Assembly: GCA_020723325.1 (NCBI GenBank)
Contig: DYJD01000002.1
Location: forward strand, 95,629 to 159,628
Direction: 5' to 3'
Length of the DNA stretch: 64,000 nt
From: Desulfosudis oleivorans
GTDB lineage: Bacteria > Desulfobacterota > Desulfobacteria > Desulfobacterales > SURF-7
The notes beneath the pieces were generated by a model. The model had not been told where the DNA came from. It saw only the letters and a list, made by a program, of their open reading frames with translations, and searched no databases. The stretch's first letter is position 1. The number at the start of each line of letters is the position of its first letter. This document shows, piece after piece, positions 3,596 to 26,367 of the stretch. The translations under genes were made by a program, and so were the position numbers.

Positions 3596-3612
3596 ATGGA
3601 TGTTTTTCAGCT

Positions 3613-4824: not shown

Positions 4825-5604
4825 CTAACATAGATCAAATTCTTGCCCTTTCACGACAAATCCATTGAATCCGTCCTTCACAGGATCTCTGTCCGGTTTG
4901 GGTTGGTAGTGGTAGAGCCACATCTTTTTTTTGATCTCCGGGGGAAGCGTGCAGAGTTCGTCATAATGGGCGTGGACCGTTGTCCGGAAAGCTGTGGTCT
5001 CCACATCATGAAAAATCAAGCCCACCTCCGTATGGATGTGGGTTAAAAATTCGGGTTGAAACTGGGTGTCCGTTGAAATAAACACATTGGGGCTTCCACC
5101 GGTTTCCGACATCAACAGGCCGTAGCTGTAATGATTCCGCGAATCCGCCATAACATGGGGCATCCGCCACAATGTAAAATCGATGGCCTCCCAGGTAAAA
5201 CGATTTTCAGCGGATATGGGGAAGCATTCAAAATAATCGTCCAGGTGCATCACCTTGCCCTTGATGCATTTTAGTCCGCCCTGCAAGGAATGGTTCCAGA
5301 GTTCCTCCATGGTCGCCGTGTTCATGAAGAGTTTGGGGGGAGGTGAATTGGGAACGAAATAGGTGTTGATGGCGACCCACTCGAGACCGCCGATATGGTC
5401 CGAATGGAGATGGGAGATGTAGACCGCCTCGATCTCGCGGCCGAAATTTGCCGCGTTAATGCCGGCTTCATTCAGAGAAAAACGGATATCGCTGCCGCAG
5501 TCCAACAGCAGTTTTTTCCCTGACTGCGCGGTGATCAGCAGGTTCGACTGGTAGTAATCCGCTGTTGTGAAAGCCGAGCCGACCCCCAGAAATTTTATTT
5601 TCAA
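4825..5604 (-). CDS. Metallo-beta-lactamase-fold hydrolase
   Basis: 259 residues, an RNase Z/PDE-like metallo-beta-lactamase fold. The metal motif HLHSDHIGG lies at residues 65-73, LLLDCGSD precedes it, and downstream His and Asp candidates occur in MPHVM, STDTQF and HDVETT. It is the last gene of the hydrogenase-chemosensory operon and overlaps the cyclase gene by four bases (ATGA), so it is surely co-transcribed. This superfamily includes class II cyclic-nucleotide phosphodiesterases, RNases and lactonases. Its position directly behind a nucleotide cyclase makes degradation of the cyclic nucleotide an attractive guess, but nothing in the sequence proves the substrate. Confidence 0.9.
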   Translation of the reverse strand: MKIKFLGVGSAFTTADYYQSNLLITAQSGKKLLLDCGSDIRFSLNEAGINAANFGREIEAVYISHLHSDHIGGLEWVAINTYFVPNSPPPKLFMNTATMEELWNHSLQGGLKCIKGKVMHLDDYFECFPISAENRFTWEAIDFTLWRMPHVMADSRNHYSYGLLMSETGGSPNVFISTDTQFQPEFLTHIHTEVGLIFHDVETTAFRTTVHAHYDELCTLPPEIKKKMWLYHYQPKPDRDPVKDGFNGFVVKGQEFDLC

Positions 5605-7076
5605 TGGTTTTTCCTTTGTGTGTGCAGGTTCAGGACTTTGCCGAGAAAGACCTCCGCTTCCGGCGGAATCGACGTAAAATTGACCCGGAACGAAGAAGGC
5701 GAAGCCACGTCGGTGACCTTGGCGTATAGATCCGTGGTGACGGCCTGGCTTTTTTCGTCAAACAGCGTGATCTTGATGTTCACCAGCTTCTCCAGTTCCA
5801 AGTCCGCTGTTATCGCGGCCGCCTGTTCGATGATACCGGTGATGGACCCGGAATGCAAATCGCTGCCGGCGTGTTTGCCGGCGAGGACCGTAAACTGAAT
5901 GTTCAGCGGTTCGGCCAGGTCCAGGAGCTCCAGTGCTTTTTTCTTGGGCAGCTGGATATTGAATTTCCCCCCCACGCCGCCGATTTCATAGATTACGATG
6001 GGTTCCTTGACCCCCTTGGGCATAACTTCCAGCTGGTCGTCCACCCTCAGGATATCTCCGCAGGCCTTGAGGGTGCTCTCGGAAATATAGGTCTGTCCGC
6101 CGACGGTGTAGGATTCTATCCGGGCGGTCAGGTTCACGTTCCGGCCCACGCAACCGTATTTCATCCGTTTCATGGAGCCGATGTTGCCCACCACCACCAT
6201 GCCGGTATTAATCCCGATGCCCTGATGAACTTCGGGATAGCTTCTTTCCCGGCATTTTCGGTTGACCTCGGCCATGGATAGCTGCATTTCCAGGGAACAG
6301 GCCACGGCCCTCAGGGCGTCGTCTTCCCGCTGGATGGGAGCGCCGAAGATGACAAAAATGGCATCACCGATGAATTCGTCGATGGTGCCTTTGTATTTCA
6401 AGATGATTTCCGTCATGGTTTCAAGATAGATATTGATGATATCCACCACCTCCTCCGCCGGCAGCCGCTCGCCGATGGCGGTAAAGCCGCGGAGATCCGT
6501 CATCATGATGGTGACCTGCCTTTTGTCACCACCCAAGATGGCACCGTCTGGGGTCTCGAGGATGCTGTCGACAATATCGTCCGACAGATACTGGCCGAAG
6601 GTTTTCCGAATGAACCGGTTGGCCCTTTCCAGGTGGTCCATGGCCTCGTTTCTTTCCAGGAGGTTGATGTAGCCCCGGGAATGGTAGCGGATGCGGGCGA
6701 TGATCTCCAGGGGGTCCGGGAGTTTCACCATGTAGTCGTTGGCCCCCAGGGCGAACGCCTCGGCCTTGGTGCGGGCCTCTTCCTTGCTGGAAAGAACGAT
6801 CAGGGGCACGGCGGCGGTTCGACGGTTGGCGCGGAAATAGCGGACCAGGGTTAGGCCGTCTATGTCCGGCATCACCAGGTCCTGGAGAATCACCGTGGGC
6901 TGTATCTGGTTGGCCTTTTTGATTGCCAGGGTTGGATCCTGGCAGTAGTGGAAATCGATGTCGGGCTCCGTGTTCAGCATCCGCCGGACGGTTTCGCCGA
7001 TGATGGCCTGGTCATCCACCAGGAGGACGGTTATCCTGTGCTCCGCCAGTTTTGTCTCCGCTAACGCGCTGTTCAC
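5601..7076 (-). CDS. WspR-like receiver fused to class III nucleotide cyclase
   Basis: 491 residues from a GTG that overlaps the cheB stop (GTGA). The receiver (about 15-135) is strikingly like WspR: VLLVDDQAIIGETVRRML, phosphoacceptor Asp66 in VILQDLVMP, and GANDYMVKLPD. Instead of GGDEF it carries a class III cyclase domain (about 185-370). Metal ligands are Asp194 in MTDLRGFT and Asp238 in FIGDAIFVIFG; the transition-state pair is Asn315/Arg319 in NVNLTAR. The residue usually Lys in adenylate cyclases is Glu234 and the second purine-selecting position is Gly308, so GTP use is possible. The last 120 residues look like a beta-barrel, perhaps PilZ-like, without a clear RxxxR. Predicted role: phosphorylation-controlled cAMP or cGMP synthesis in the cytoplasm. 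A longer in-frame start at 7151 would lie inside cheB and is rejected. Confidence 0.9.
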   Translation of the reverse strand: MNSALAETKLAEHRITVLLVDDQAIIGETVRRMLNTEPDIDFHYCQDPTLAIKKANQIQPTVILQDLVMPDIDGLTLVRYFRANRRTAAVPLIVLSSKEEARTKAEAFALGANDYMVKLPDPLEIIARIRYHSRGYINLLERNEAMDHLERANRFIRKTFGQYLSDDIVDSILETPDGAILGGDKRQVTIMMTDLRGFTAIGERLPAEEVVDIINIYLETMTEIILKYKGTIDEFIGDAIFVIFGAPIQREDDALRAVACSLEMQLSMAEVNRKCRERSYPEVHQGIGINTGMVVVGNIGSMKRMKYGCVGRNVNLTARIESYTVGGQTYISESTLKACGDILRVDDQLEVMPKGVKEPIVIYEIGGVGGKFNIQLPKKKALELLDLAEPLNIQFTVLAGKHAGSDLHSGSITGIIEQAAAITADLELEKLVNIKITLFDEKSQAVTTDLYAKVTDVASPSSFRVNFTSIPPEAEVFLGKVLNLHTQRKNH

Positions 7077-8152
7077 TGCAAAAAACGTCTCCCTTCCCGT
7101 TTGGATAGAAAAGCGATGATGGCCTGGGCGATGGCCTCCACCGGCAGGCACTCCACCGCGGCGTTGAGCTGGACAGCCGCCTTGGGCATACCGTAAACCG
7201 AGGAAGTGGCCTCATCCTGGGCGATGGTATGCCAACCCAGCCGGCGAAGCTCCCCCAAGCCCTTGGCGCCGTCGTTCCCCATGCCGGTCAGGATGATGGC
7301 GATGCCGCTGTCCGGCCAGTTTTCCGCAGCGCTGTGAAAAAAGACATCCACCGACGGGCGGAACGGTACATCCTTCGGTTCCGAGGTATACGCGAAGCGG
7401 CGTTCGGGGGTCAGGACCATGTGGTCATTGGTGCTGGCCACATAAATGGTGCCGGCCGCCGGATCGGTACCCTCCCTGGCCAGTTCCACTTTCATGACAG
7501 CCTGTTTGGCGAGCCAGTTGACCATATTGGCGGAAAATTCCTCCAGTACATGCTGGATAATGACGATGATGGCCGATAGCTGACCGGGGAGGCCGCCGAG
7601 AATCTTTGCCAGAGCCTTGGGCCCGCCGGTGGAAGCACCGATGATGACCAGGGGGGCGGCGGGTTTTTCAGCATCCCGGCTTGACGAAGGGCGGGAGACG
7701 GCTTGGACCTTGGCCGGTTCCTGCGGACCTGCCGGTGGGTTTTGCTTGTCCACCGATTTTTTCAGGATGCCGGCTTTGCGGATCTTTTTGCAGAGCAGCT
7801 CATCGAAGGAACGCGCGCCGGCTTTGTCGGTTCCGATTTCAACGGCATCCACCGCCCCAAACCCCATGGCCTTGAATATTTCGCCGGAATGGGCATCAAT
7901 ATCCGACGTTAGAATGATGATCTGGCACGGTGTTTTCTGCATCATCCCCCGGGTCACTTCGACGCCGTTCATCACCGGCAGGTCGATATCCAGGAGGACC
8001 ACGTCGGGACGGTTGGTTTCCACCTGCTTTATGGCCTCGGAACCGCTTCCGGCGGTCCAGACAATCGAGAAATCCACCTGCTTATCGATGCATTTCCGTA
8101 GAGAGCACAATACTTCGACGTCATGATGGGCGATGCCGATGCGCATGGTCAC
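7073..8152 (-). CDS. cheB: CheB-type methylesterase (WspF-like)
   Basis: 359 residues. The N-terminal receiver has phosphoacceptor Asp in VVLLDIDLPVMNG. After a Pro/Ser-rich linker comes the C-terminal esterase with the catalytic Ser in IGASTGGPKAL, His in VIIQHVLEEF and Asp in ILTGMGNDGAKG. It demethylates or deamidates receptor glutamates in the adaptation arm of the pathway, here presumably on the haem chemoreceptor of the same operon. Its GTG start overlaps the cheA stop (GTGA) and its own stop overlaps the GTG of the cyclase gene. An ATG two codons further in is an alternative start. In Wsp the homologous esterase is the brake whose loss locks the output on. Confidence 0.93.
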   Translation of the reverse strand: MTMRIGIAHHDVEVLCSLRKCIDKQVDFSIVWTAGSGSEAIKQVETNRPDVVLLDIDLPVMNGVEVTRGMMQKTPCQIIILTSDIDAHSGEIFKAMGFGAVDAVEIGTDKAGARSFDELLCKKIRKAGILKKSVDKQNPPAGPQEPAKVQAVSRPSSSRDAEKPAAPLVIIGASTGGPKALAKILGGLPGQLSAIIVIIQHVLEEFSANMVNWLAKQAVMKVELAREGTDPAAGTIYVASTNDHMVLTPERRFAYTSEPKDVPFRPSVDVFFHSAAENWPDSGIAIILTGMGNDGAKGLGELRRLGWHTIAQDEATSSVYGMPKAAVQLNAAVECLPVEAIAQAIIAFLSKREGRRFLQ

Positions 8153-11064
8153 GAATCTCCGATCAGGTCAATCACCGCATCCAGAAAGGTGTTGTCCTCA
8201 AAGCTGCTTTTGGTTAAGTAGTAATCCGCCCCCAATTCGAGCCCCCGCATCCGATCCTCCTCCCGGTCCTTGTAGGAGATGATGATCACCGGTATGGACT
8301 TCAAATCATCATGTCTCTTGATATTGCCCACAAATTCGAATCCGTTCATCCGGGGCATGTCGATATCGGAGATAACCAAGTCGAAGTGGCTGGAACGGAT
8401 GACGTTCCAGCCTTCCGCGCCGTCAACCGCTATTTCCACTTCATATCCCATGTTTCTCAGAAGTTTACGCTCCATCTCGCGCACGGTAATGGAGTCGTCC
8501 ACCACCAGAATGCGTTTCTTGCGGGCTTTTCCGACATCATCATCAGTCCCGATTTTTTTCAGACTGCGGCCGTGTAACAGATTGTCGATGGAGCGCACCA
8601 TGTCTTCCACATCAATAATGAGTACCGGTGACCCGTCCAGCATGATAGCGGCGGCATCAATGTTCGGCACTTTTCCCAGGCGGGCATCCAGGGGGCGCTC
8701 CACGAGATCGGTCTCCCCTAGGAATTTGTCCACGGCCAATCCATAGGTATGGAGGCGGTCGCTGAGCACCAGCACCATGATGTCATCCGCCGGCTTTGCT
8801 TTTCTATTGGTGGATAGAACATCGTGGATATCCACCAGGGCGATGTTGCTGCCGTCGAACTGGAAGTATTCGCGGGATTCCACGGTCTCGATTTCCTCAC
8901 GGTTCAAAACCAGGCACCGGTCGATGCGCGCCAAGGGAAACGCATAGAGTTCCCCGCTTATTTCCACCAGAAACGTCCGGATGACGGAAAGGGTCAGGGG
9001 AAGTTCCAGGATGAATGTCAGCCCTTCACCGGGTTTGGTCTCCGCCCGGACCACTCCGCCCACTTCGCGGACCATGGTTTGAACCACGTCCAGACCGACA
9101 CCCCGGCCGGATATCTGCGTGACATCGCTCCTGGTGCTGAAGCCGGGCAGAAAGAGAAAATCCAGCAGTTCATGTTCGCCCATCTGTTCAATCATTTTCT
9201 CATTGGCCAGCCCCTTCCGGGCGATCTTCTTGCGGAGGTCGTCCAGAATGATTCCGCGGCCGTCATCGGAAACGGTGACCATGAGCATGCCGGAGAGATG
9301 TGACGCCTGCAGCACCACCAGTCCGGATTCGGGTTTTCCGGCCGCAAGGCGCTCTTCCCGTGATTCTATCCCGTGGTCAACGGCGTTCTGAATCAAATGG
9401 GTCAACGGCGCGTCCAGTTTTTCCAGAATATCCCGGTCAACTTCAGTGTTTTTCCCCCGAATTTCAAAGGATACCTTTTTGTCCAGCTGACGGGATAGAT
9501 CTCTTACCAAGCGCGGAAATTTCCGGACACCATCGGAAAAAGGCCGCATGCGCACCGAAATCACTTCATGATAGATGCTGTCCGAAAGGGTAGCGTAGGT
9601 GCTGGTGAATTTTTCCAGGTGGTTCATCCGTTCCGCCAGTTTCTGGATGCTTTCCTTGTTGCGTTCCCGTGCTTCCGCAATGATTTTCTGGATATCATCA
9701 TCCCGGCTGGCGTTTCTGCCTTGAATCATTTCCTGCAGCCGCGAGAGGATATTGTAAAGCTCGGTATGACTTCGCTTGAGGCTCAGCAGCGATTCCGAAA
9801 AGGGCGGCAGCCAACTGGCCCCCACCACTACCTCGCCGGCCAGTCCCATCAGGCGCTCGATTTTTTCCGCGGATACGCGTATGGCCCTGGTCTTGTCCGC
9901 CGCCTTGGATGAAGGTGTTTTGTCGCCGTCATTTTCCGGCGGCTTGTCGGCCTTGACCGCCGCCGGCACCTCCCGGTGAACGGAATCAGGCGGCGCAGCC
10001 ACGGAACGGTCGCTATTTTCCCGGGGCATTGCCGATGAATCCTGATCGCCAGCGCCGGAACCGGATCTACGGGGGGGAGGCGGAGACGCCGCCGTTTCCG
10101 AGGAAATAGCCCGGACAGCCTGGATTAACAGGTCATTTTCGGTCTTCAGGCCGGCGAGTCGGTTTTCATCCCGGTCCTTCCCGGCTTCCGATATTTTCAA
10201 AAGCATGTCGACACCTTGTAGGAGCGTGTCCACGTTTTCCGGTGACAGCGTGACCCGGCCGCCCTGGGCGGCCACGAAACAATCTTCCATGACATGGGCG
10301 CAATCCACCGCCAGGCGGAGGCCCACCACCCGGGCCCCTCCTTTGATGGAATGGGCGCTGCGCATGAGTGCTTCCAGATGGTTGGCGTCCCCCGGGCTGT
10401 TTTCCAGGGCCAGCAAGCCGTTGTTCAGCACTTCCGTGTGACTTTTCACCTCCTCCATGTACAGGTCGAGCATACCGTCGTCAGCGGTCACGCTGCTGCC
10501 GATGGTCGCCTCCAGCTTGGAACCGCGGCCGGGGGCGGAGCCGGAAACGGGTTCGCGAGCCGGTCGCGCCCCAACCGCTGCCTCCGCCGGGGATATTTCG
10601 GTTTTCGGCACAGAAGCGGGTGTCCTGGCATGGGAGCCGGCGTTCCCCGCTGAATTTCCAGCCGATACAGCGGCGATTTTCCCACGGATGTTTTCCCGTT
10701 GACATGTGAGCCAGTAGGAAAGTTCGGCGTTCTCCGTATCCGCCATTTCCAGAAGCAGGTCAGCGGCGCTGATCAGGCTGTCGGCGGACTCCGGGAGCAA
10801 TTGCCATCCGCCTTTCCTGATGGCGACCAAGCAGTCTTTGATGGCCGCCGCAAGATCGGCTATATCGTCGGCTTCCACGATCCGCGCTCCGCCATATACC
10901 ATTTTGGCGGCGTTGATCAAGGTGTCGAGGCCGCCGGGGGTATCCGGAGCGCTCACGATTTCCGGCAGACCGTCCCGCAGGATGCTGCCATGGGTTTTTA
11001 CCTCCGAACGAAACAAGTCCAGGATGGAATCGTTGCCGGATGGTTGCATGTCGCTGCTGTTCAC
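8149..11064 (-). CDS. cheA: CheA hybrid kinase with two Hpt regions and REC (WspE-like)
   Basis: 971 residues from a GTG overlapping the upstream stop, with AAGGAG seven bases before it. Domains: a degenerate Hpt (about 10-120, AAKMVYGGAR with Lys54 where the phospho-His should be); an active Hpt (about 195-310, AHSIKGGAR, His238); a long Pro/Ser/Ala-rich linker; the dimerisation helix region (from about 460); the GHKL ATPase with NAVDHGIE and SDDGRGI; a CheW-like domain; and a C-terminal receiver with phosphoacceptor in LVISDIDMPRMNG. WspE is likewise a CheA-REC fusion. It should autophosphorylate on His238 and feed its own receiver, CheB and the receiver-cyclase. A longer frame back to 11250 lies in the preceding gene and is not used. 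Confidence 0.93.
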   Translation of the reverse strand: MNSSDMQPSGNDSILDLFRSEVKTHGSILRDGLPEIVSAPDTPGGLDTLINAAKMVYGGARIVEADDIADLAAAIKDCLVAIRKGGWQLLPESADSLISAADLLLEMADTENAELSYWLTCQRENIRGKIAAVSAGNSAGNAGSHARTPASVPKTEISPAEAAVGARPAREPVSGSAPGRGSKLEATIGSSVTADDGMLDLYMEEVKSHTEVLNNGLLALENSPGDANHLEALMRSAHSIKGGARVVGLRLAVDCAHVMEDCFVAAQGGRVTLSPENVDTLLQGVDMLLKISEAGKDRDENRLAGLKTENDLLIQAVRAISSETAASPPPPRRSGSGAGDQDSSAMPRENSDRSVAAPPDSVHREVPAAVKADKPPENDGDKTPSSKAADKTRAIRVSAEKIERLMGLAGEVVVGASWLPPFSESLLSLKRSHTELYNILSRLQEMIQGRNASRDDDIQKIIAEARERNKESIQKLAERMNHLEKFTSTYATLSDSIYHEVISVRMRPFSDGVRKFPRLVRDLSRQLDKKVSFEIRGKNTEVDRDILEKLDAPLTHLIQNAVDHGIESREERLAAGKPESGLVVLQASHLSGMLMVTVSDDGRGIILDDLRKKIARKGLANEKMIEQMGEHELLDFLFLPGFSTRSDVTQISGRGVGLDVVQTMVREVGGVVRAETKPGEGLTFILELPLTLSVIRTFLVEISGELYAFPLARIDRCLVLNREEIETVESREYFQFDGSNIALVDIHDVLSTNRKAKPADDIMVLVLSDRLHTYGLAVDKFLGETDLVERPLDARLGKVPNIDAAAIMLDGSPVLIIDVEDMVRSIDNLLHGRSLKKIGTDDDVGKARKKRILVVDDSITVREMERKLLRNMGYEVEIAVDGAEGWNVIRSSHFDLVISDIDMPRMNGFEFVGNIKRHDDLKSIPVIIISYKDREEDRMRGLELGADYYLTKSSFEDNTFLDAVIDLIGDS

Positions 11065-11732
11065 TGAACACTCCTTGTCAGTCGGTAGATCAGCAGTTCT
11101 TCGTCCAGCAGGCTGACCTGCCGGCCATCCCAATGAAAAATGGCCTTTGTGAACGTGGATTTCGCCTTGGACACGGTCACGGGGACATTTTGAAGCATGC
11201 CGGGGTTCAGGCGGTGGACTCCGTGGATGTGATGAACTGGGAAGACCCATTTCTCGCCGTCCCTGTTGATTACCAGCATCCGCCGGCAGCCCCGGCTCTC
11301 ATCCGTTTCTTCTTTCTCCAATTCGAAAAGAGCCTTCAGGGAAACACACAGCTGGATTTCGCCGTGCATATTGATAATTCCGATGAGCACGGAATTTTTC
11401 CGATGGGGAACGCTGTGGACGGGCACCGGTTCGATCACCTCCGCAAAAATCCGGGTGGGCAGTGCAAACCATTCCGCAGCGATTTTAAAGATGACCACCG
11501 AGATGGTGCCGATATGTTCGATTTCCTTTTTATCGGCCAGCACCTCCGTGCACTCCTCGCGATAAGTCTCCGGAAGGTCTTGTTGCAGGAGGCTTCTGCC
11601 GGCTTGGATGTAAACATTGCAGTTCCGGCAGTGGATTACCCTGTCCAATTCCAGGCAACGGGGCCGTTCATCGCCCCATACGCCGGTCCGCTTCCAACAG
11701 CGATTGATTTCGGCAGCATCATGCTCTTTCAA
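11061..11732 (-). CDS. WspD-like CheW coupling protein with Cys-rich N-terminus
   Basis: 223 residues. The C-terminal half (about 75-215) is a CheW fold (FKIAAEWFALPTRIF, IIGIINMHGEIQLCVSL). The N-terminal 60 residues hold an unusual Cys-rich motif, CWKRTGVWGDERPRCLEL then HCRNCNVY, typical of the second CheW of Wsp operons (WspD). The TTG start overlaps the cheR stop (TTGA), with GAGGCG upstream. It would couple the kinase to receptor clusters. Whether the cysteines bind metal is unknown. Its position between CheR and CheA matches wspC-wspD-wspE. Confidence 0.88.
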   Translation of the reverse strand: MKEHDAAEINRCWKRTGVWGDERPRCLELDRVIHCRNCNVYIQAGRSLLQQDLPETYREECTEVLADKKEIEHIGTISVVIFKIAAEWFALPTRIFAEVIEPVPVHSVPHRKNSVLIGIINMHGEIQLCVSLKALFELEKEETDESRGCRRMLVINRDGEKWVFPVHHIHGVHRLNPGMLQNVPVTVSKAKSTFTKAIFHWDGRQVSLLDEELLIYRLTRSVQ

Positions 11733-13039
11733 GGCGCCTCCGTCTTGTTGCGAATTCTATCCATACGTTCCTTTATCCTCGTCGCCTTCATGCGGTCACC
11801 GGCCTGTTCGGCCAGGATCAACAAATGCTGGAGCGCATCCAGATGGCTCGGCTTCAGATACAGCACCCGGTTGAAACACTCACCGGCTTGGTGGTTGTCA
11901 TCCCTGGCGCCGCAGATGACCCCCTGGAGGAAATAGGCTTCCACGAAGCCGCTGTTTCGTTTGATGATTTCCTCACAGAGGGCGAAGGCACTGTCCAAGT
12001 CGCCCTGATCCGCCAGATGCCGGGCCTTGTCAAAAAGCTCGGGAAGCTCCCCTTTGCCCTGGCTGGGCAACTTGGCGTTGTCCGCCTGGTATTTGGGCCG
12101 GACGGGGATTTGGGGGGTCTCCGCGGGCTTGGGAACTGCAATCGGACCAGGGGCAGGGGCCGGACTAGGCCCTTTCGTCGCTACCGGCGCCCTGGGCGGA
12201 GGAGACGGCGCTTTCGATGCCGTCTTGGCCGGTTTGTCCGAGGCGGCTACCCGCCGGTAGGCGAAGATGCCGACCTGCCGGATCCGTTCCATCTGGTTTT
12301 CCGCAAACGGGTATTCTTCCGCATGCCCCATAAACAGAAGGCCCCCGATATTCAGCAGACGCTGCAGAACAGCCGCCGCCTTTTTTTTCGCTGAGTTGCT
12401 GAAGTAAATAAACAGGTTCCGGGAGAGGATGATGTCGTAAGGGGGCGTGTTTGTAAGAAACGTTTCGGCGATGATATTGCCCTGCAGGAAGGTCACCGTT
12501 TCCCGGATGGCCGGTATCAGAAGATATCCATCTGGTGTTTCTTGGAAATAGCGCTCCCGATACTGCAGGCTGTCCCCCCGGAAGGAGACTTTTTCGAACA
12601 CCGCGCCCTTGGCTTTTTTCAATACGTAGGCGCTGATATCCACTGCATCGATGTGGAACCTTCCAGGCGGAAAACCCATGTCGAACAGGATCATGGCGAT
12701 GGTATAGGGTTCTTCGCCGGTGGCGCAGGGGATGCTCAGGATCCTCAGATTGCTGCCCTGCCTGGATAACAACCAGGTGTTTCTGATGTGATCGGCCAGG
12801 TATTCCAACTGCTTGCGGTTCCGGAAAAACCAGGTTTCCGGAATGGTCAGCTCCTCTATGAGTTCTTTCATCTCCGGGTTGGAGGTCGTAAGAAGGTCGT
12901 AATAGTCTTGGGTGGAGGAAAGCCGGCAAGCGGCCATGCGTCTGGCCACCACCTTTTGAAAGAACTCCTTTCCGATGGCGCCGGTGGACAGGCCGATGGT
13001 TTCTTCCATTAGAGCTTCAAGAGACGCTAACGATTCCAT
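11729..13039 (-). CDS. cheR: CheR-type methyltransferase with TPR tail (WspC-like)
   Basis: 436 residues. Residues 1-265 form a CheR domain: an all-alpha N-terminal part with PETWFFRN, then an SAM-binding Rossmann fold with ILSIPCATGEEPYTIAM and DIILSRNLFIYFS. A Pro/Ala-rich linker of about 60 residues leads to TPR-like repeats (about 325-430, LFDKARHLADQGDLDSAFAL and AYFLQGVICGARDDNHQAGE). It methylates receptor glutamates. The TPR tail is a feature of WspC/FrzF-type enzymes. Its ATG overlaps the TAA of the upstream cheW by one base. Confidence 0.92.
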   Translation of the reverse strand: MESLASLEALMEETIGLSTGAIGKEFFQKVVARRMAACRLSSTQDYYDLLTTSNPEMKELIEELTIPETWFFRNRKQLEYLADHIRNTWLLSRQGSNLRILSIPCATGEEPYTIAMILFDMGFPPGRFHIDAVDISAYVLKKAKGAVFEKVSFRGDSLQYRERYFQETPDGYLLIPAIRETVTFLQGNIIAETFLTNTPPYDIILSRNLFIYFSNSAKKKAAAVLQRLLNIGGLLFMGHAEEYPFAENQMERIRQVGIFAYRRVAASDKPAKTASKAPSPPPRAPVATKGPSPAPAPGPIAVPKPAETPQIPVRPKYQADNAKLPSQGKGELPELFDKARHLADQGDLDSAFALCEEIIKRNSGFVEAYFLQGVICGARDDNHQAGECFNRVLYLKPSHLDALQHLLILAEQAGDRMKATRIKERMDRIRNKTEAP

Positions 13040-13488
13040 TATTCCTCGATGATGGAAACGAATTGCAAACTACGGGGTAGAAGGTCCAGGTCAATGAACT
13101 GGATCATCTCTTCGTCCAACATGACGACATTTTTCAGATAAGGCGCCGTGTCCATCACCACGCCGGAAGGCAGAAAAGCGTCCGCCGTTTTACGAACTGT
13201 CTCGGTTACCCGCTCGGCCATGAGGCCGATGGTATAAGGTGCTTGGTTCTGCCGTTCAAAATCCACCAGGATAATCCGAGTGCTCAGGCGCATCTCGCAG
13301 GACTTGCCCTGGATCAGACGTCGCAGGTCGATAACCGGAACAATGACCCCCCTGTAGTTCAAAAGACCGACGACAAATTCCGGTGCCTGGGATATTTCCT
13401 TCAGCCGCACCATGGGCGCCACCTCCCGGACCTTTTCGCATTTTATGGTGTACATCTCGTCGCCGAGATAAAACAAAAGCAGCAGCAT
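13039..13488 (-). CDS. cheW: CheW coupling protein (WspB-like)
   Basis: 149 residues, a single CheW domain: LLLLFYLGDEMYTIKCEKV at the start, VVGLLNYRGVIVPVIDLRRL in the core, and FIDLDLLP near the end. It bridges the chemoreceptor and CheA. The open frame extends to 13587 but would then overlap the receptor gene. The ATG at 13488 puts the hydrophobic first strand at the N-terminus as in WspB. A GTG three codons upstream is the other option. A gap of 67 bases separates it from the receptor stop. Confidence 0.9.
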   Translation of the reverse strand: MLLLLFYLGDEMYTIKCEKVREVAPMVRLKEISQAPEFVVGLLNYRGVIVPVIDLRRLIQGKSCEMRLSTRIILVDFERQNQAPYTIGLMAERVTETVRKTADAFLPSGVVMDTAPYLKNVVMLDEEMIQFIDLDLLPRSLQFVSIIEE

Positions 13489-13555
13489 GGTTGACACCCG
13501 ACCTTTTTTCAATGATTCATATGCCGCATGAAATCCGATATACGGGAGTAATGGG

Positions 13556-15211
13556 TTACACCACTTTAAACCGGGACGCTTGTTCATGGAGCCGTCGGGC
13601 CGCGTCGTTCAACTCCCCGATGGCCATAAAGGTCTCCTGCAGGGAATCGGTGGTCTGATGCATGACCACACCCAGGTCGGTCATGGTGAGATTCATTTTT
13701 TGGGCATTCTCGGACTGATTTACCATGGCGGTGTTGATTTCCCTGAATTTGGGATAGAGCGCCTGCACCTGGTCGATGATCCGGGTGAGCTGGGAACTGA
13801 TTTTCGTGATGTCCTCGGCGCTGCGCTGCACTTCGGCAATGAACTTGTCCATTTCCATGACCCCCGAAGACACGGCCGATTGCATTTCCTTGACCATCTG
13901 GTCGATATCCAGCGTGGCCACAGCGGTTTGATCCGCAAGCCGCCTGATCTCACGGGCCACCACCGTGAAGCCGCGGCCGTACTCACCGGCCTTTTCCGCT
14001 TCAATGGCCGCGTTCAAGGACAGGAGATTGGTCTGATCGGAAACCTTGGTGATGGTGGTGACCACGTTGGTGATGTTTTCCGCCTTTTCATAAATGGTGC
14101 CCAGCCTGGCGGAAATGGCGCTGGAAGCCGATTCCATCTGTTTCATGGCCTCGCCCATGCGTGTGAGGTCCGACTGCCCGCTGCTGGCGTAATCGGCGGT
14201 TTGGTTCAGGTCATTGGCCATCTGCTGCATGGTGTTTACCAGGTTTTCCGCGATATCGGAAATCCCCTCAATGGATTTCACCATGTTCTCCGTGGACGAT
14301 AGTTGGTTGTTCAGCACGGTCTTTTGCTCGGTGGCGGAAGCCGACAATTCTGTGGATGACGACGTGATCTGCACGCCGGATTTCTGAACCTGCTCTACGA
14401 TGGACCGGATCTGTTCTAGAAAATCATTGAAGAGCTTTGCCAGGGTGCCCAGTTCGTCTTCCGAGGCAATCCGCAGACGCCTGGTCAGGTCCGCTTCGCC
14501 GGCGGAAAGATCCTTGAACCCTTCGATGACCCGGGTGAGGGGCTGCTTCACAAAACGATTCACGAAATAGTACATGGCTCCGAGAAAGAAAATCACAATG
14601 AGAACAAGACCATAGAAGGAATTGATCATGGAGCGTGTTTTGGCGTCGGAGATGATCCGCTCTGCATTTTTTTTGGCGTCTTCCAAGGCTTGGGTGGAAA
14701 ACGTCATGCCGGTGACACCGCAGATTTCACCTGTTTTCCAGTTGTTGTGACACCGCATGCAGGTGGGCTCCACCACATGGGGCTGATAAATTTCAAAAGT
14801 GCCGGAGGCGGCATTTTCGTTGATCTGTTTTTTGGGGTCGGCATAGAGTTTTTTGGCCAGATTGGCCGGCATCTTTTTGTTTAGGTTGGAAGGATAGGAT
14901 GAATGGGTCACCACGCCGTTCCGGTCGTAGAGGGAAAATTCCAGCACACCTTGGACCGTCCGCTGGGCCTCGATGAGCCGGGTAAATTTTTCCATCTCCC
15001 CGCGCACCAGGGAACCTTTCACTGCTTGTTCCACCGAGTTGAATTGGTTTTCGGCGAATTGTTTTTCCCTGTTTTCCAGGGCTTCGATGGTTTTTTGGGA
15101 CAATTCCGAAAGCATCCCCACCGTGCCCAGATACTGGATGCACATGGCGATCAGCACCGACGCCACCAACGCGGACAGAATGGCGATACTGAGCTTGACA
15201 TGCAGTTTCAT
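13556..15211 (-). CDS. Methyl-accepting chemotaxis protein with periplasmic c-type haem motif
   Basis: 551 residues: TM1 about 7-29; periplasmic domain 30-198; TM2 about 199-219; HAMP about 220-272; then the signalling domain with hairpin tip TNLLSLNAAIEAEKAGEYGRG. The periplasmic part contains CMRCH at residues 151-155, a CxxCH covalent haem c site, in a context resembling DUF3365/Tll0287-like haem sensor domains (SLYDRNGVVTHSSYPS, then FEIYQPHVVEPTCMRCH). It starts four bases after the hydrogenase small-subunit stop, so hydrogenase and receptor are translated from one mRNA. The haem is a plausible electron acceptor or redox/gas sensor facing the same compartment as the exported hydrogenase. 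The methylation targets are the CheR and CheB downstream. Confidence 0.93.
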   Translation of the reverse strand: MKLHVKLSIAILSALVASVLIAMCIQYLGTVGMLSELSQKTIEALENREKQFAENQFNSVEQAVKGSLVRGEMEKFTRLIEAQRTVQGVLEFSLYDRNGVVTHSSYPSNLNKKMPANLAKKLYADPKKQINENAASGTFEIYQPHVVEPTCMRCHNNWKTGEICGVTGMTFSTQALEDAKKNAERIISDAKTRSMINSFYGLVLIVIFFLGAMYYFVNRFVKQPLTRVIEGFKDLSAGEADLTRRLRIASEDELGTLAKLFNDFLEQIRSIVEQVQKSGVQITSSSTELSASATEQKTVLNNQLSSTENMVKSIEGISDIAENLVNTMQQMANDLNQTADYASSGQSDLTRMGEAMKQMESASSAISARLGTIYEKAENITNVVTTITKVSDQTNLLSLNAAIEAEKAGEYGRGFTVVAREIRRLADQTAVATLDIDQMVKEMQSAVSSGVMEMDKFIAEVQRSAEDITKISSQLTRIIDQVQALYPKFREINTAMVNQSENAQKMNLTMTDLGVVMHQTTDSLQETFMAIGELNDAARRLHEQASRFKVV

Positions 15212-15214
15212 GGA

Positions 15215-16138
15215 TTATTTCCCTCCCCTTCCGGATGAAGCCGGCGTCAGGTAAAAAGGAAAGGATGCGTCTTTGGCAAATCCCTCCCGGGCGCATCCGA
15301 TGCAAGGGGCGTTGGCGTTGATGCAGGTATTCGCCCCGCTGTTCCACAGCCGTACCGTGCAGTCCGCGTGGGTGACCGGGCCCTGACAACCGAGGTAGAA
15401 GAGACAGCCGTTCTCACCGAAGCTTGTCGCGAAGTGTTCCCGCTCGTATTCGGCGAATCTGGGGCACTGGTCGTGGAGTAAGCGGGAGTAGAACATTTTG
15501 GGCCGACCTAAATCGTCCAGCTCCGGGTTTCCGAATTTGAGCTTGTGTACGATGGTCCCGACGATCCAGTCCGGGTGGGCCGGGCATCCCGGGACCCGGA
15601 TGAGACCTGTCGCAATGGCTTTTTGTTTGAGAAAATCGGGAACGCTGACGGCGCCTGTGGGATTGTTCTCTGCCGCCGGGATACCACCGAAAGAGGCACA
15701 GGCGCCCACGGCGATGACCGCCTGGGCGCTTCGGGCGGCCCGGGCCACCTGCTCGGTTATGGTCTCATGGCCGACCCGGCATGCGTTCGGCAGACCGACG
15801 GGCATGGCCCCCTCCACCACCAGGATGTAACCACCCCGGTTGATGCTTTTCTCGATCACATCCATGAAGGTTGCCCCGGTGGCGGTGGAGAGTGTCTGGT
15901 GGGCCATTAAAGCGATATAGCGTGTCAAGAGTTGCAGGGGGCCGGGATACTCGGTGTTCAGCAGTGAGATCGAACATCCCGAGCAGCTCTGGCCCTGAAG
16001 CCATAGGACCGGAGGATTGCTGGACGCCAGTTTTTCCAGGGCATCTACGATCCTTGGGGCCGCGCCGGTCCCCAGACCCATCAGCAGGGCAAGCTTTGAA
16101 GCGGCTTTGAGAAATTCTCTTCGTGTTATATTCAGCAT
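15215..16138 (-). CDS. [NiFe] hydrogenase small subunit, Tat-exported
   Basis: 307 residues from the ATG at 16138, which follows AGAGGA; the frame extends to 16180 into the previous gene and is not used. The Tat signal is TRREFLKAA at residues 5-13, followed by a hydrophobic stretch. Fe-S ligands can be followed: proximal CSGC (52/55) plus Cys in VGACASFGG and VPGCPAHPDW; distal LLHDQC with NGCLFYLGC; medial DCTVRLW to APCIGC. The proximal motif has the standard four-Cys form, not the six-Cys form of O2-tolerant enzymes. There is no C-terminal membrane anchor, so a soluble periplasmic heterodimer is expected. It passes electrons from H2 outward, and the very next gene encodes a haem receptor. 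Confidence 0.94.
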   Translation of the reverse strand: MLNITRREFLKAASKLALLMGLGTGAAPRIVDALEKLASSNPPVLWLQGQSCSGCSISLLNTEYPGPLQLLTRYIALMAHQTLSTATGATFMDVIEKSINRGGYILVVEGAMPVGLPNACRVGHETITEQVARAARSAQAVIAVGACASFGGIPAAENNPTGAVSVPDFLKQKAIATGLIRVPGCPAHPDWIVGTIVHKLKFGNPELDDLGRPKMFYSRLLHDQCPRFAEYEREHFATSFGENGCLFYLGCQGPVTHADCTVRLWNSGANTCINANAPCIGCAREGFAKDASFPFYLTPASSGRGGK

Positions 16139-16155
16139 GCGGTATCCTCTTTTTT

Positions 16156-17685
16156 TTAATGTACGGCACAGGCAATGCACGGGTCAAAGGAACGGATCAC
16201 CCGTGTCGCTTCGATGGGATTTTCTGGATTCTTAATCCGCGTTCCCACCAGGGCTTGCTCCACTGCCCCTGGTTTTCCGGAGGCATCCCGAGGAGAACAG
16301 TTCCAGGTGGTGGGTACCACACACTGGTAATTCGCTATTTTCCGGTTTTTAATCTGGATCCAATGACCCAGGGCACCCCGGGAAGCCTCGGTCAAACCGA
16401 CGCCGGAAGCTTCTTCCGGAATGGCCACCGCAGTTACCGCGGGCTCATCGGGTTTCAGTTCCGCGAGCCATTCCGCGCAGCGGTCCGCCACGAGCTTGCA
16501 TTCAATGGCTCTTGTGGCGTGGCGGCCCAACACCGATACCAGATTTTCTGCTTTTGCCCCCAGTTTCTTCAGGACGCCATCCACCAGCGTTTTTACCTGG
16601 TGGTGCCGTCCGCTGTTCTGTTTATAGGCGATCAGGATCCGGGCAAGAGGGCCCACTTCCATGACCTGACCCTCGTAACGGGGCGCCTTCAGCCACGAAT
16701 AGGCGCTTTCCTTCTGGCCCGGATCAACCGGCGCCGTGACACCCGTAGCGGGATTCAAGACCGCTGCGGCTTTGTACCATGAAAACGTCACGTCCTCGGT
16801 GATCCCCGAAGGATTGAAGCTCCGGGAGGGTCCATCGCCGATGATGACTCCGGTGGGCAGAAAATGGTCGGTGTTGCCCTCTGCCTCGGAGAAGGCGCCG
16901 TAGGAAAGAAAATTGCCGCATCCTTTACCTGCCTGAAAATACTCGGGGAAGGCCTGGGCCACGGCCAGGACATCCTCAAGATAGGCGTTGTCGACAAATA
17001 CCCGCAGCTTTTGCAGCATTTCGCCATAGGCCGCTATCTTGCGGGGGGTGACCCGTTCCGTCACCCCACCAGGCACCAGGGTGGCCACATGGGGTAGCTT
17101 TCCGGCGAACAGAGCCCCCATCTCGTGGGCCAGCCGACGCATCTCCAGAGCATCCAGGTAATGCTTCACCGCCGTGATATTCAGTTCCGGGTCTTCCGCG
17201 TATTGACTTTCATACCGTGGCAGAAAAGGTGCCACCGGGTAGAGGCTGTTGGAGGAAAGCTGACTTTGCACCCATGCCTTGAGTTCGCTAAGCGCTGGGT
17301 CCTTACCGTTGTATTGGGTGACGGCTTTGATATCGATGAAGTCCAAGGCGGACAAGTGGTAGAAATGAATGAGGTGGGATTGAATATAATTTGCACCCAA
17401 AATCAGGTTTCTCAGGAGCTTGCCGTTTCGAGGCGGGATCACTTTGTAAGCCGCTTCCTGAGCCAGAGTCGAAGCTATACCGTGGGATACGGGGCAGACC
17501 CCGCAAATCCGTTGGGTGATCTGCTGGGCATCCATGGGGTCCCGATTTTTCAGGATGAGTTCAAAACCGCGGAACATTTCCCCCGAACAATACGCTTCCA
17601 TCACCTGGTTCGATTCAATCCGAAGCCTTACGGCAAGATGCCCTTCAATTCTCGTTACAGGATCTATCCCTATGGTTTGGGCCAT
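16156..17685 (-). CDS. [NiFe] hydrogenase large subunit lacking C-terminal peptide
   Basis: 509 residues from the ATG at 17685 (GGAG about nine bases upstream; an ATG seven codons earlier is possible). The active-site ligands are RICGVC (Cys61, Cys64) and DPCIAC (Cys503, Cys506); the proton-relay Glu is in TRIEGH. The protein ends exactly at His509 of DPCIACAVH, followed by TAA. Most group 1 enzymes carry 15 or so extra residues after this His that a dedicated protease removes. Their absence is known from H2-sensing regulatory hydrogenases (HoxC/HupV) and group 4 enzymes. It is the first gene of the chemosensory operon; no maturation genes are nearby, so hyp factors must come from elsewhere. 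Confidence 0.94.
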   Translation of the reverse strand: MAQTIGIDPVTRIEGHLAVRLRIESNQVMEAYCSGEMFRGFELILKNRDPMDAQQITQRICGVCPVSHGIASTLAQEAAYKVIPPRNGKLLRNLILGANYIQSHLIHFYHLSALDFIDIKAVTQYNGKDPALSELKAWVQSQLSSNSLYPVAPFLPRYESQYAEDPELNITAVKHYLDALEMRRLAHEMGALFAGKLPHVATLVPGGVTERVTPRKIAAYGEMLQKLRVFVDNAYLEDVLAVAQAFPEYFQAGKGCGNFLSYGAFSEAEGNTDHFLPTGVIIGDGPSRSFNPSGITEDVTFSWYKAAAVLNPATGVTAPVDPGQKESAYSWLKAPRYEGQVMEVGPLARILIAYKQNSGRHHQVKTLVDGVLKKLGAKAENLVSVLGRHATRAIECKLVADRCAEWLAELKPDEPAVTAVAIPEEASGVGLTEASRGALGHWIQIKNRKIANYQCVVPTTWNCSPRDASGKPGAVEQALVGTRIKNPENPIEATRVIRSFDPCIACAVH

Positions 17686-17705
17686 TCCGTCATTTCTCCG
17701 TTCCA

Positions 17706-18616
17706 TTTGGGTTTAAAATAACTACATTATCTTATGGAATATTATGTTGATTTTGTTTCTGTATATGTTTTGGGAATTGAAAGCCTCGCCTTTCGGTGTC
17801 GGTTGCAGCGAGCGGTTATAGCCGAAGCCATGGAAGGACTATCGACACGACTTATATACGGTATCCGTGATCCATAATCATTCGAATTGGAGCACGAATT
17901 ACCGAAAGTAATTACGTAAAGGAGATTAATGGTATCTGGTTAAAGAGTTGATCCGGGAAATAGACAAATGGCATGTTTCCAAGCATCATAATATACGTGT
18001 TTGAATCAATCCCCCCCCGGAAATATCGATTCAATATCTTTTCACACAACGATTGAAGGGAGATACCTTGTCTTATGTAATGGTGAAAAATCCAATCCAC
18101 GCTATATTAATATCTCAAAAAGCATCTCCGGTGTCAACCAATAATCTGGAGGGGCATTGCTGAATTTTGAGTATCATGAGCCATTTCCGCCAATAAATGG
18201 TTTGACATCTCGGGCGCTGCTTGTTATGATTCCTTATCATTAATTGGTATTCTTTAACTATTCTTTTTTTCCAGCGATAACCCGAAAAAATAAATATAGA
18301 TACCATTGGGAAAAGATCCAAGGAAGAACGAACAGCAGTATCGTCTTGTCTGTCATTGTCTCACCCCATAAACCGTGTACGTTCAGCCTAGTAAACACTT
18401 CCAAACGGGTATGTTCAAGAGGCAGCCATTATGGATATGTCTGATGACTGTGGAGCAGGGGAAATGAATCACCGCCTGTGGATGAAATAGCGAGAAGATC
18501 AGCAGGGATGCATCAAAAACCGACCCTGCCAGAGGCATGAGTGTAAACCGATGAGCATGACAAGTGCCGCTTCCGCTGTTCGCCGTGACACAACATTGCA
18601 CCAAGGGGTGACCTGT
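17706..18616. other. Divergent intergenic region between hydrogenase operon and second receptor
   Basis: About 900 bases separate the minus-strand hydrogenase operon from the plus-strand chemoreceptor. It is AT-richer than its flanks, and no protein-like frame is convincing; short frames at 17912-18100, 18115-18321 and 18383-18604 have no family features. It must hold the operon promoter and the promoter of the plus-strand genes. I could not identify clear sigma-70, sigma-54 or CRP boxes by eye. Confidence 0.5.
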
Positions 18617-25674: not shown

Positions 25675-26367
25675 ATGGTAACATCTACATTCGGTACGGT
25701 GAAAAAATACCACAAGAACGAAATAATTTTTCAAGAGGGGGATCCCGGGACCCATGGATTTCTTATCAAGAGCGGAGAAGTGACGATTTTTCGTATCTTC
25801 GGTCTTAAAAAAAAGATATTAAACGTTCTGCTACCGGGAGAAGTATTTGGAGAAATGGGTGTTATCAATCAAGCGCCTCGCTCTGCCGATGCGGTTGCTT
25901 CGGACGATTGTGAATTGGTGGTCATCGACAAAAACACATTTTTGCGAGCGCTGAATGAATCCCCAAAACTCATTCAATCGATTACCCATACCCTGATGAA
26001 ACGATTGATGATTTTAACCGAAATGGTGAGTGGGAATGAAAATCAAGAGGCCGCGACTGAACAGCAATTCATCCGTATTTGCAAACTCCTTCATTGGGTT
26101 AATAAATATGCTGACCCCGCTGCCGGCATGTCCTTTGACTATGATGAGTTCTGTGACAATGCAATGGACATTATCGGAGTATCGCGACTTGAAATCTATA
26201 ACATGCTGGAGAAGCTATCTTTATTAAAGTTACTAGAAATATTGGGTGATCTGAATGAAAAATCAAAGAGCCGGATAAAAATTGTGAAACCGGATGATTT
26301 TTTAAAACAAGCTCAAAGGGCCTTCGAATCTTTACCAGAGAAATCTCCATCAACTAAAAACAAATAA
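25675..26367 (+). CDS. CRP/FNR-like cyclic-nucleotide-binding protein
   Basis: 230 residues. The N-terminal cNMP-binding domain has VFGEMGVINQAPRSADAV with Glu60 and Arg69 conserved, matching the phosphate-binding cassette of ligand-binding members. The C-terminal part (about 125-200) is helical with DIIGVSRLEIYNMLEKLSLL, compatible with a winged-helix DNA-binding domain but not a textbook Crp HTH. A basic low-complexity tail ends the protein. It may be a transcription factor reading the island cyclase product, or a non-DNA-binding cNMP adaptor. The start has AGGAAAAAA upstream. Confidence 0.85.
   Translation: MVTSTFGTVKKYHKNEIIFQEGDPGTHGFLIKSGEVTIFRIFGLKKKILNVLLPGEVFGEMGVINQAPRSADAVASDDCELVVIDKNTFLRALNESPKLIQSITHTLMKRLMILTEMVSGNENQEAATEQQFIRICKLLHWVNKYADPAAGMSFDYDEFCDNAMDIIGVSRLEIYNMLEKLSLLKLLEILGDLNEKSKSRIKIVKPDDFLKQAQRAFESLPEKSPSTKNK

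What the first reader, a model, noticed from the sequence alone, without database searches (positions are those of the whole stretch)
4825..17685. Hydrogenase, haem chemoreceptor, Wsp-like cascade and nucleotide cyclase in one operon
Ten minus-strand genes with overlaps or tiny gaps run: [NiFe] hydrogenase large and small subunits, haem-c chemoreceptor, CheW, CheR-TPR, WspD-like CheW, CheA-REC, CheB, WspR-like receiver-cyclase, MBL hydrolase. From receptor to receiver the order is that of Pseudomonas wspABCDEFR. Input (hydrogenase plus haem) and output (class III cyclase, not GGDEF) are both new relative to Wsp. This suggests an H2- or redox-responsive sensory system with a cyclic-nucleotide output. 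I know of no described system with this set; that is a recollection, not a search.
Basis: partly seen in the sequence, partly recalled or inferred. Interest (0 to 1): 0.95.

Follow-up and report, generated by a model that had tools for sequence, protein, structure and literature searches.

The report
Hydrogen-sensing hydrogenase wired to a chemoreceptor
A gene pair for an enzyme of the kind that splits hydrogen gas sits in one tight gene run with a receptor that carries a haem-attachment motif and with a signalling chain ending in a nucleotide cyclase; enzyme and receptor are found together in 54 of 57 gene neighbourhoods compared, so they likely form a hydrogen sensor, here with the messenger cGMP as its predicted output.

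Summary
The ten-gene minus-strand run is real and joins two conserved modules. Module 1: [NiFe] hydrogenase subunits plus a chemoreceptor whose periplasmic domain carries CxRCH, together in 37 of 39 loci in the window's order and 17 of 18 elsewhere in the phylum (the three misses are on short contigs). These hydrogenases form one clade; their large subunits stop at DPCxxCAVH without the usual C-terminal extension (55 of 55 in view), as described H2-sensing hydrogenases do. HydS divergence tracks the haem domain (r = 0.90), not the receptor's signalling half (partial r = -0.02). Module 2: a Wsp-like cascade with a WspR-type receiver fused to a cyclase and, usually, an Apyc1-family phosphodiesterase; REC-cyclase plus CheB stand without hydrogenase in 16 of 20 loci fetched from relatives. 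In the window the module-1 haem domain sits on the module-2 receptor's signalling half. The cyclase has the Glu/Gly pair of guanylyl cyclase Cya2: cGMP is predicted. Likely mechanism (inferred): H2 oxidised in the periplasm reduces the receptor haem, and CheA then changes phosphorylation of the cyclase. Not shown: transcription, haem, electron transfer, product. HydDB lists group-1 [NiFe] hydrogenases as respiratory; a sensory clade would be new.

The parts
16156..17706 (-). [NiFe] hydrogenase large subunit (HydL); RICGVC and DPCIACAVH; the protein ends at that His, no C-terminal extension
15215..16180 (-). [NiFe] hydrogenase small subunit (HydS), Tat-type TRREFLK motif, Cys residues aligned with periplasmic [NiFeSe] small subunits
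13556..15211 (-). chemoreceptor (MCP): Cache/PAS-like sensor domain with CMRCH (151-155) and invariant Met73, HAMP, Wsp-type signalling domain
13039..13587 (-). CheW (WspB-like)
11729..13039 (-). CheR methyltransferase with a weak TPR (WspC-like)
11061..11732 (-). CheW (WspD-like)
8149..11250 (-). CheA with C-terminal REC (WspE-like); the true start is probably near 11064 (inference)
7073..8152 (-). CheB (WspF-like)
5601..7151 (-). response regulator: WspR-type receiver + class III nucleotidyl cyclase with guanylate-type Glu/Gly pair + C-terminal beta-rich domain
4825..5604 (-). MBL-fold Apyc1-family cyclic-nucleotide phosphodiesterase homologue (HLHSDH)
18551..20614 (+). divergent dCache chemoreceptor with the same class of signalling domain (73% over 160 residues); possibly the displaced original receptor of the cascade
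23141..25000 (-). candidate effector (guess): cNMP_binding + type II/IV secretion ATPase
25675..26367 (+). candidate effector (guess): cNMP_binding (CRP-like) protein

Best explanation
The operon encodes a likely H2 sensor: a [NiFe] hydrogenase, predicted to be exported to the periplasm, would oxidise H2 and pass electrons to a haem c predicted in the neighbouring chemoreceptor, which would control a Wsp-like CheA cascade whose response regulator is predicted to make cGMP. SHOWN by calls: the ten genes; the conserved HydL-HydS-receptor unit; CxRCH and an invariant Met in the sensor domain; no C-terminal extension on HydL; co-divergence of HydS with the sensor domain but not with the signalling domain; the WspR-type receiver; the Glu/Gly cyclase signature; the Apyc1-family phosphodiesterase homologue beside it. 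INFERRED: Tat export, haem attachment, catalytic activity, direct electron transfer from the distal Fe-S cluster to the haem, the sign of the response (in the Geobacter homologues the reduced, Met-ligated haem is thought to be the inactive state), phosphotransfer to the cyclase, cGMP as product, its removal by the phosphodiesterase, and the evolutionary step by which the hydrogenase's own sensor domain was joined to the signalling half of the cascade's receptor.
For: Linkage: 39 HydS loci of the clade in 38 of 389 genomes of the order; 37 of 39 have the CxRCH receptor, 32 of these directly next to HydS and 5 with one other MCP between (window included). Outside the order, 18 loci in 17 further genomes of 395 sampled in the phylum: 17 of 18. 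Reciprocal search with the sensor domain alone: 37 of 41 receptor genes in 379 genomes lie next to hydrogenase genes. Controls: 0 of 21 other hydrogenase loci, 19 of them with only about 1.5 kb or less of flank, and 0 of 7 further non-clade loci with longer flanks. Tree: all 48 linked hydrogenases fall in one 50-row clade, SH-aLRT 98, midpoint root. No C-terminal extension: 37 of 37 in view in the order, 18 of 18 outside, 119 of the 120 best-listed of 2,435 database matches; extensions in the controls that could be read; H2-sensing groups 2b/2d lack it (PMC7294309, passages). Co-divergence, n = 35: HydS-sensor r 0.90, HydS-signalling r 0.37, partial -0.02. CxRCH in 79 of 79 database relatives, Met73 in all 79, Cache/PAS-like model. 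Signalling half 73-78% identical to 15 of 15 receptors beside hydrogenase-free REC-cyclases. WspR receiver, 60-62% identity in the structural alignment. Cya2-like E/G. HypD present once elsewhere in the genome.
Against: No transcript, protein, haem or activity data. 2 of 39 loci in the order lack the haem-motif receptor in view: L073 is cut by its contig end, and in L095 a haem-less MCP and a receiver protein follow HydS before the contig ends; L184 outside the order is cut. In L083 the receptor gene is interrupted by a stop. In L084 no HydL is found: a run of N and an unrelated gene lie upstream of HydS. 4 of 41 sensor-domain genes stand away from hydrogenase; three have other motifs (CGVCH, CTVCH, CTGCH) but one, L186, has CVRCH. 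The missing C-terminal extension is not unique to sensors: group 4c, 4e and 4g enzymes lack it too. Related haem Cache domains in signalling proteins had NO-sensor properties in vitro (PMC12889525, abstract). The sensor domain reaches only sub-threshold Pfam scores and matches GSU0935 weakly (rmsd 13). The REC-cyclase model is of low confidence over the cyclase. Terminator-like matches inside 3900-18600 exceed the shuffles (30 against 17.6, sd 4.1). The hydrogenase may also feed respiration. Linkage of both modules is seen only in the window and, by inference, one more contig.
Confidence: 0.7

Rival explanations
1. The hydrogenase is a respiratory periplasmic uptake enzyme that feeds the periplasmic cytochrome pool, and the receptor's haem reads the redox state of that pool; the genes are together because both serve anaerobic redox life.
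For: Closest solved structures are periplasmic [NiFeSe]/[NiFe] hydrogenases; HydDB lists all group 1 [NiFe] classes as respiratory (PMC5037454, passages); the small subunit has a Tat-type motif. Haem MCPs of Geobacter are proposed redox sensors (PMC8396549, passages).
Against: The linkage and the missing C-terminal extension are confined to one clade; 21 control loci outside it have neither. Our profiles marked no other partner gene beside HydLS, but cytochrome genes were not searched for. HydS distances track the sensor domain's, which a shared diffusible carrier would not need.
Confidence: 0.18
2. The sensor domain is an NO (or other diatomic gas) sensor and the hydrogenase is only a co-regulated neighbour.
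For: DUF3365/Tll0287 haem Cache domains in signalling proteins had NO-sensor properties in vitro (PMC12889525, abstract); GSU0582/GSU0935 bind NO and CO (PMC8396549, passages).
Against: 37 of 41 genes with this sensor domain are beside this hydrogenase clade; the CxRCH arginine goes with linkage except in L186; co-divergence r = 0.90. An NO sensor needs no hydrogenase.
Confidence: 0.07
3. The output is cAMP, or another nucleotide, rather than cGMP; the rest of the mechanism holds.
For: JGI names some relatives 'adenylate cyclase'; specificity is predicted from two positions only.
Against: E and G at the specificity positions as in Cya2, where the adenylate cyclases CyaB (3r5g), 1wc0 and the engineered E488K form (6fht) have K (PMC5995499, passages); E kept in 18 of 20 aligned rows and 23 of 23 in a second set, window included in both.
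Confidence: 0.2

Closest known systems
Regulatory H2-sensing [NiFe] hydrogenases, group 2b (HoxBC/HupUV)
   Same: hydrogenase used as sensor; large subunit without C-terminal extension
   Different: RH is a cytoplasmic group-2 enzyme acting on a histidine kinase (location and partner partly recalled); here a group-1-like enzyme with Tat-type motif next to a chemoreceptor with a haem motif
[FeFe] hydrogenase group C2, 'Chemotactic (putative)' (HydDB, PMC5037454)
   Same: hydrogenase linked to methyl-accepting chemotaxis proteins, proposed H2 sensing
   Different: [FeFe] enzyme of unrelated fold (recalled); here [NiFe], with a separate receptor carrying a haem motif
Geobacter haem-c chemoreceptors GSU0582/GSU0935 and sCache_heme (DUF3365/Tll0287)
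   Same: periplasmic Cache/PAS-like domain with CxxCH; conserved Met at a spacing like that of the distal ligand Met60 of GSU0935
   Different: the two texts searched do not mention a hydrogenase; sequence similarity is below Pfam cut-offs
Pseudomonas Wsp system (wspABCDEFR)
   Same: same component set (Wsp gene roles recalled); receiver 60-62% identical to WspR
   Different: GGDEF replaced by a class III cyclase; hydrogenase in front; Apyc1-family phosphodiesterase behind; receptor sensor domain with haem motif
CheR-TPR / ACF clusters with mononucleotidyl cyclase regulators (PMC3447774)
   Same: a REC-cyclase as output of a chemosensory cluster is already noted there
   Different: no hydrogenase mentioned in that text
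Guanylyl cyclase Cya2 of Synechocystis
   Same: 46% identical cyclase domain with the Glu/Gly pair
   Different: Cya2 is CHASE2-regulated, here receiver-linked

Membership tests
H2-sensing regulatory hydrogenase (group 2b) | large subunit lacks the C-terminal extension | tested here: met
   37 of 37 in view in the order, 18 of 18 outside, 119 of 120 listed database relatives
H2-sensing regulatory hydrogenase (group 2b) | cytoplasmic, no Tat signal (recalled) | tested here: not met
   TRREFLK near the HydS N-terminus, both Arg invariant in 10 of 10 aligned; export itself not tested
H2-sensing regulatory hydrogenase (group 2b) | partner is a PAS histidine kinase (recalled) | tested here: not met
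   adjacent partner is an MCP
Group 1 respiratory uptake hydrogenase | closest sequence relatives among periplasmic group-1-type enzymes | tested here: met
   (group names recalled; HydDB was not run)
Group 1 respiratory uptake hydrogenase | C-terminal extension on the large subunit, as in neighbouring clades | tested here: not met
Group 1 respiratory uptake hydrogenase | supports growth on H2 | not testable with these tools
   needs culture
sCache_heme / GSU0935-type haem-c sensor | CxxCH motif | tested here: met
   79 of 79 database relatives, window CMRCH
sCache_heme / GSU0935-type haem-c sensor | PAS/Cache fold | tested here: met
sCache_heme / GSU0935-type haem-c sensor | score above Pfam PF21563 or PF11845 cut-off | tested here: not met
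   18.6 against 27 and 17.6 against 24.1 bits; so described as related, not filed as a member
sCache_heme / GSU0935-type haem-c sensor | covalent haem bound | not testable with these tools
   needs protein
Wsp system | components MCP, CheW, CheR, CheW, CheA-REC, CheB, REC regulator (recalled set) | tested here: met
Wsp system | WspR-type receiver | tested here: met
Wsp system | GGDEF output making c-di-GMP | tested here: not met
   Guanylate_cyc instead
Guanylate cyclase (Cya2 type) | Glu and Gly at the base-recognition positions | tested here: met
   DEFIGD and KYGCVG aligned with 2w01; K in the adenylate cyclases shown
Guanylate cyclase (Cya2 type) | makes cGMP | not testable with these tools
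   needs enzyme
Apyc1 / class II MBL phosphodiesterase | HxHxDH and family score above cut-off | tested here: met
   HLHSDH in the sequence; PF23023 87.1 against 50 bits
Apyc1 / class II MBL phosphodiesterase | hydrolysis of cyclic mononucleotides | not testable with these tools
   needs enzyme
[FeFe] group C2 | [FeFe] hydrogenase domain | tested here: not met
   only [NiFe] hydrogenase families matched

The most novel reading that the evidence does not exclude
A clade of group-1-type [NiFe] hydrogenases, seen in at least 24 families of one phylum, has left respiration and become a periplasmic H2 receptor subunit: it docks on and electronically charges the haem c of a chemoreceptor, so that an enzyme's turnover is the signal. 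In the window this input is spliced onto a Wsp cascade and makes cGMP a second messenger for hydrogen, with secretion/pilus-type motor ATPases, one carrying a cyclic-nucleotide-binding domain, next door as possible effectors.
Probability: 0.38. Interest if true: 0.95.

Novelty: new variant of a known kind. Interest (0 to 1): 0.86.

Why it matters
How anaerobes find and respond to H2 is a basic question of sediment ecology. Known [NiFe] H2 sensors are group-2 enzymes; HydDB lists every group-1 [NiFe] class as respiratory (PMC5037454, passages). If this clade is sensory, group-1 genes in many genomes of this phylum are being read as energy metabolism when they are receptors. It would also give a natural example of a redox enzyme driving a chemoreceptor through a haem, with swapped outputs, and a testable route from H2 to cGMP.

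Tried and rejected
Rejected: chance adjacency. Rejected: the full operon in G214. Its HydLS-receptor contig (L088) does not continue into cheW, and its cascade (L147) is on another contig; the cascade there has no receptor between CheA and CheB, and the receptor is of the same signalling type (72%), so wiring in trans is possible but unproven. A PDB sequence search with the sensor domain found no relative. The C-terminal domain of the REC-cyclase has no Pfam match at E 0.1; the model shows six strands and a helix, a PilZ-like outline by eye, but the fold searches were filled by the receiver, so this is untested. Transcription signals: promoter-like matches 9 against 8.9 expected; terminator-like 30 against 17.6 expected, on both strands and mostly inside genes; consensus matches only, not used. 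Homologues of the neighbouring secretion-type ATPases and the CRP-like gene were not found at E 1e-15 in the 20 REC-cyclase loci of relatives, so their role as effectors is a guess; the genome has 25 cNMP-binding matches. The literature searches found no [NiFe]-hydrogenase/chemoreceptor system; they cover open-licence PMC papers only, three of them returned nothing, and (33 papers) only the 15 listed titles and abstract starts were seen. PMC4704652 was seen in the listing only.

Rows dropped or limited before counts: one search used 35 of 37 linked loci (L080 and L083 lacked the hairpin pattern); one search left out HydL pieces of 380 residues or less; two rows of G106 are halves of one gene and were counted once. 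In one search only the 39 matches of 417 bits or more, above a gap down to 323, were counted as the clade; of the weaker ones three loci (L105-L107) were inspected. In the phylum sample the cut was 402 bits. Of 20 REC-cyclase loci fetched, 16 show CheB beside it, 14 the MBL gene and 7 the complete set; L142, L153, L157 and L158 show no CheB in the stretch fetched, and L147 and L155 no receptor between CheA and CheB. Absence of hydrogenase there refers to the stretches fetched (6-20 kb).


Full report
OBSERVATION. The run at 4825-17706 is as described: ten minus-strand genes, eight of the nine junctions overlapping and one with a 3-nt gap. Domain scans confirm the assignments with the corrections listed under the observation check. 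The receptor's periplasmic half carries CMRCH at 151-155. The window lies in a 7.2-Mb, 113-contig genome, on a 398-kb contig.

MODULE 1: HYDROGENASE PLUS HAEM-MOTIF RECEPTOR. A search of 96 genomes (95 relatives and the own one) found close large-subunit relatives (48-62% identity) in 10 relatives; in 9 of these 10 the receptor lies close by (the exception is L039). A HydS profile over 389 genomes of the order gave 39 matches of 417 bits or more in 38 genomes, then a gap to 323. Of these 39 loci, 37 have a receptor with the CxRCH sensor domain: 32 directly next to HydS (the window's gap is 3 nt), 5 with another MCP between. The two misses are L073 (cut by its contig end) and L095 (a haem-less MCP and a receiver protein follow HydS, then the 4-kb contig ends). 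Two of the 37 are imperfect: in L083 the receptor gene is interrupted by a stop, and in L084 a run of N and an unrelated gene stand where HydL is expected. As a test outside the order, a sample of 395 genomes of the phylum gave 17 further genomes with 18 loci of 402 bits or more; 17 of 18 have the receptor, all with CxRCH, and the miss, L184, is cut. The search was also run the other way: the sensor domain alone over 379 genomes gave 42 rows, 41 genes, of which 37 are beside hydrogenase genes. The four exceptions are L186 (CVRCH; its genome, G035, also has a linked copy), L188 (CGVCH, in a che operon), L191 (CTVCH) and L192 (CTGCH). So the arginine in CxRCH goes with hydrogenase linkage in all but one case. 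Controls: 21 other hydrogenase loci have no such receptor within the flanks held, which for 19 of them are about 1.5 kb or less; nor have seven non-clade loci with longer flanks. In a tree of 78 large subunits all 48 linked rows fall in one 50-row clade (SH-aLRT 98) whose only two unlinked rows are contig-cut, and all 28 rows outside are unlinked (quick method, midpoint root, some long branches).

A SENSOR-LIKE LARGE SUBUNIT. The large subunits end exactly at the last ligand, DPC[IL][AG]CAVH: 37 of 37 in view in the order, 18 of 18 outside, 119 of the 120 best-listed database matches. Control hydrogenases carry an extension in 21 of 21 and in 4 of 7 non-clade loci (4 to 20 residues); the other three of the seven stop before the motif, probably at a selenocysteine codon, and could not be read. 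PMC7294309 (passages) says the apo-protein usually carries an extension, and names H2-sensing groups 2b and 2d and groups 4c, 4e and 4g as natural exceptions; group 1 is not in that list. The missing extension is therefore suggestive of a sensor, not proof.

WHAT CO-EVOLVES. Over 35 loci, pairwise distances of HydS correlate with those of the sensor domain at r = 0.90, and with those of the signalling domain of the same receptor at r = 0.37; the partial correlation of HydS with the signalling domain, given the sensor domain, is -0.02. Shared descent inflates such correlations, but it acts on both halves of one protein alike, so the contrast is informative. The unit is hydrogenase plus sensor domain, with interchangeable outputs: receptors without che genes in view, che operons of another kind (L034, L091, L092, L094, L097, L100, L170), and in the window a Wsp-like cascade.

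THE SENSOR DOMAIN. All 79 database relatives found at E 1e-10 keep CxRCH and Met73, which lies 82 residues before the predicted haem-ligating His155. In GSU0935 the distal ligand Met60 lies 84 residues before His144, and binds when the haem is reduced (PMC8396549, passages). The predicted fold (pLDDT 89.8) is Cache/PAS-like; GSU0935 is among the Foldseek matches but superposes poorly. Potentials reported for the Geobacter domains, -156 and -251 mV, lie above that of the H2/H+ couple (about -414 mV at pH 7, recalled), so reduction by hydrogenase would be downhill if the window's domain is similar.

MODULE 2: WSP-LIKE CASCADE WITH A CYCLASE. Full-length orthologues of the REC-cyclase (62-71% identity) occur in 18 other genomes of 379. 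Of 20 loci fetched (two of them with more distant copies), 16 have CheB beside the REC-cyclase, and 7 show the complete order CheW-CheR-CheW-CheA-receptor-CheB-REC-cyclase-MBL (L139, with an extra MCP, L140, L143, L144, L149, L150, L156); no hydrogenase of our profiles was found in any of the 20. None of the 15 receptors examined there has CxxCH, yet their signalling domains are 73-78% identical to the window receptor's, while other hydrogenase-linked receptors reach at most 34% in the 35-locus set, apart from L088 at 72%. The window receptor is therefore read as a chimera of the hydrogenase's sensor domain and the cascade's signalling half. The slot between CheA and CheB is empty in the window, and the divergent dCache receptor at 18551-20614 may be the displaced original. 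The receiver is 60-62% identical to WspR. The cyclase aligns best with guanylyl cyclase Cya2, and has its Glu and Gly where CyaB (3r5g) and 1wc0 have Lys and Thr; a Glu-to-Lys change gives Cya2 adenylate cyclase activity (PMC5995499, passages). The Glu is kept in 18 of 20 aligned rows. The MBL protein matches Apyc1 structures; Apyc1 cleaves all cyclic mononucleotides tested, and related MBL enzymes prefer cAMP/cGMP (PMC9117128, passages). A make-and-break pair for cGMP is the simplest reading.

IS THE FUSION REAL? Three proteins nearest to the window's, HydL (79%, P0201), haem-motif receptor (sensor region 72%, P0002) and REC-cyclase (84%, P0081), each lie on a contig of 18,682 bases. That they share one contig is inferred from the equal length; if so, a second organism has the same arrangement.

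NOVELTY. HydDB lists [FeFe] group C2 as putatively chemotactic, group 2c [NiFe] as putatively diguanylate-cyclase-linked, and all group 1 [NiFe] as respiratory (PMC5037454, passages). The literature searches found no [NiFe] hydrogenase-chemoreceptor system in open-licence papers. As a hydrogenase-based H2 sensor it would be of a known kind; the enzyme group, the predicted compartment, the haem relay and the outputs make it a new variant. Sources name relatives of HydL or of the sensor domain also from Planctomycetota, Calditrichaeota, Omnitrophota and multicellular magnetotactic bacteria, unchecked for linkage.

Noticed in passing
window 18551-20614: Divergent dCache chemoreceptor whose signalling domain is 73% identical to the haem-motif receptor's; possibly the cascade's displaced original receptor.
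   Followed up: partly
window 20727-26367: GAF + MshEN + T2SSE ATPase, a cNMP_binding + T2SSE ATPase and a CRP-like cNMP_binding protein close to the cyclase operon: possible effectors of a cyclic nucleotide.
   Followed up: partly
window 2000-3948: Hpt, REC-SpoIIE phosphatase and HATPase_c_2 genes just downstream on the same strand look like a partner-switching module.
   Followed up: no
window 5601-6020: C-terminal 100 residues of the REC-cyclase: no Pfam match; predicted six strands plus helix, PilZ-like in outline.
   Followed up: partly
L188 5471-7285, L191 6537-8150, L192 6123-7940: Sensor-domain relatives not beside hydrogenase have CGVCH, CTVCH or CTGCH instead of CxRCH (L186, CVRCH, is the exception); the arginine may mark a hydrogenase docking site.
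   Followed up: partly
L034 14309-14899, L035 5279-5866: A receiver-domain gene sits between HydL and HydS in two genomes of one family.
   Followed up: no
L081 302-4249: Rearranged order HydS, receptor, HydL, all still together.
   Followed up: no
L147 6462-11189 with L088 1697-3346: G214's cyclase cascade has no receptor between CheA and CheB, while its hydrogenase-linked receptor has the matching signalling type: possible wiring in trans.
   Followed up: partly
G000 contigs C69, C13, C68, C21, C12, C105: The genome carries seven places matching the NiFe large-subunit family, three with an in-frame TGA.
   Followed up: no
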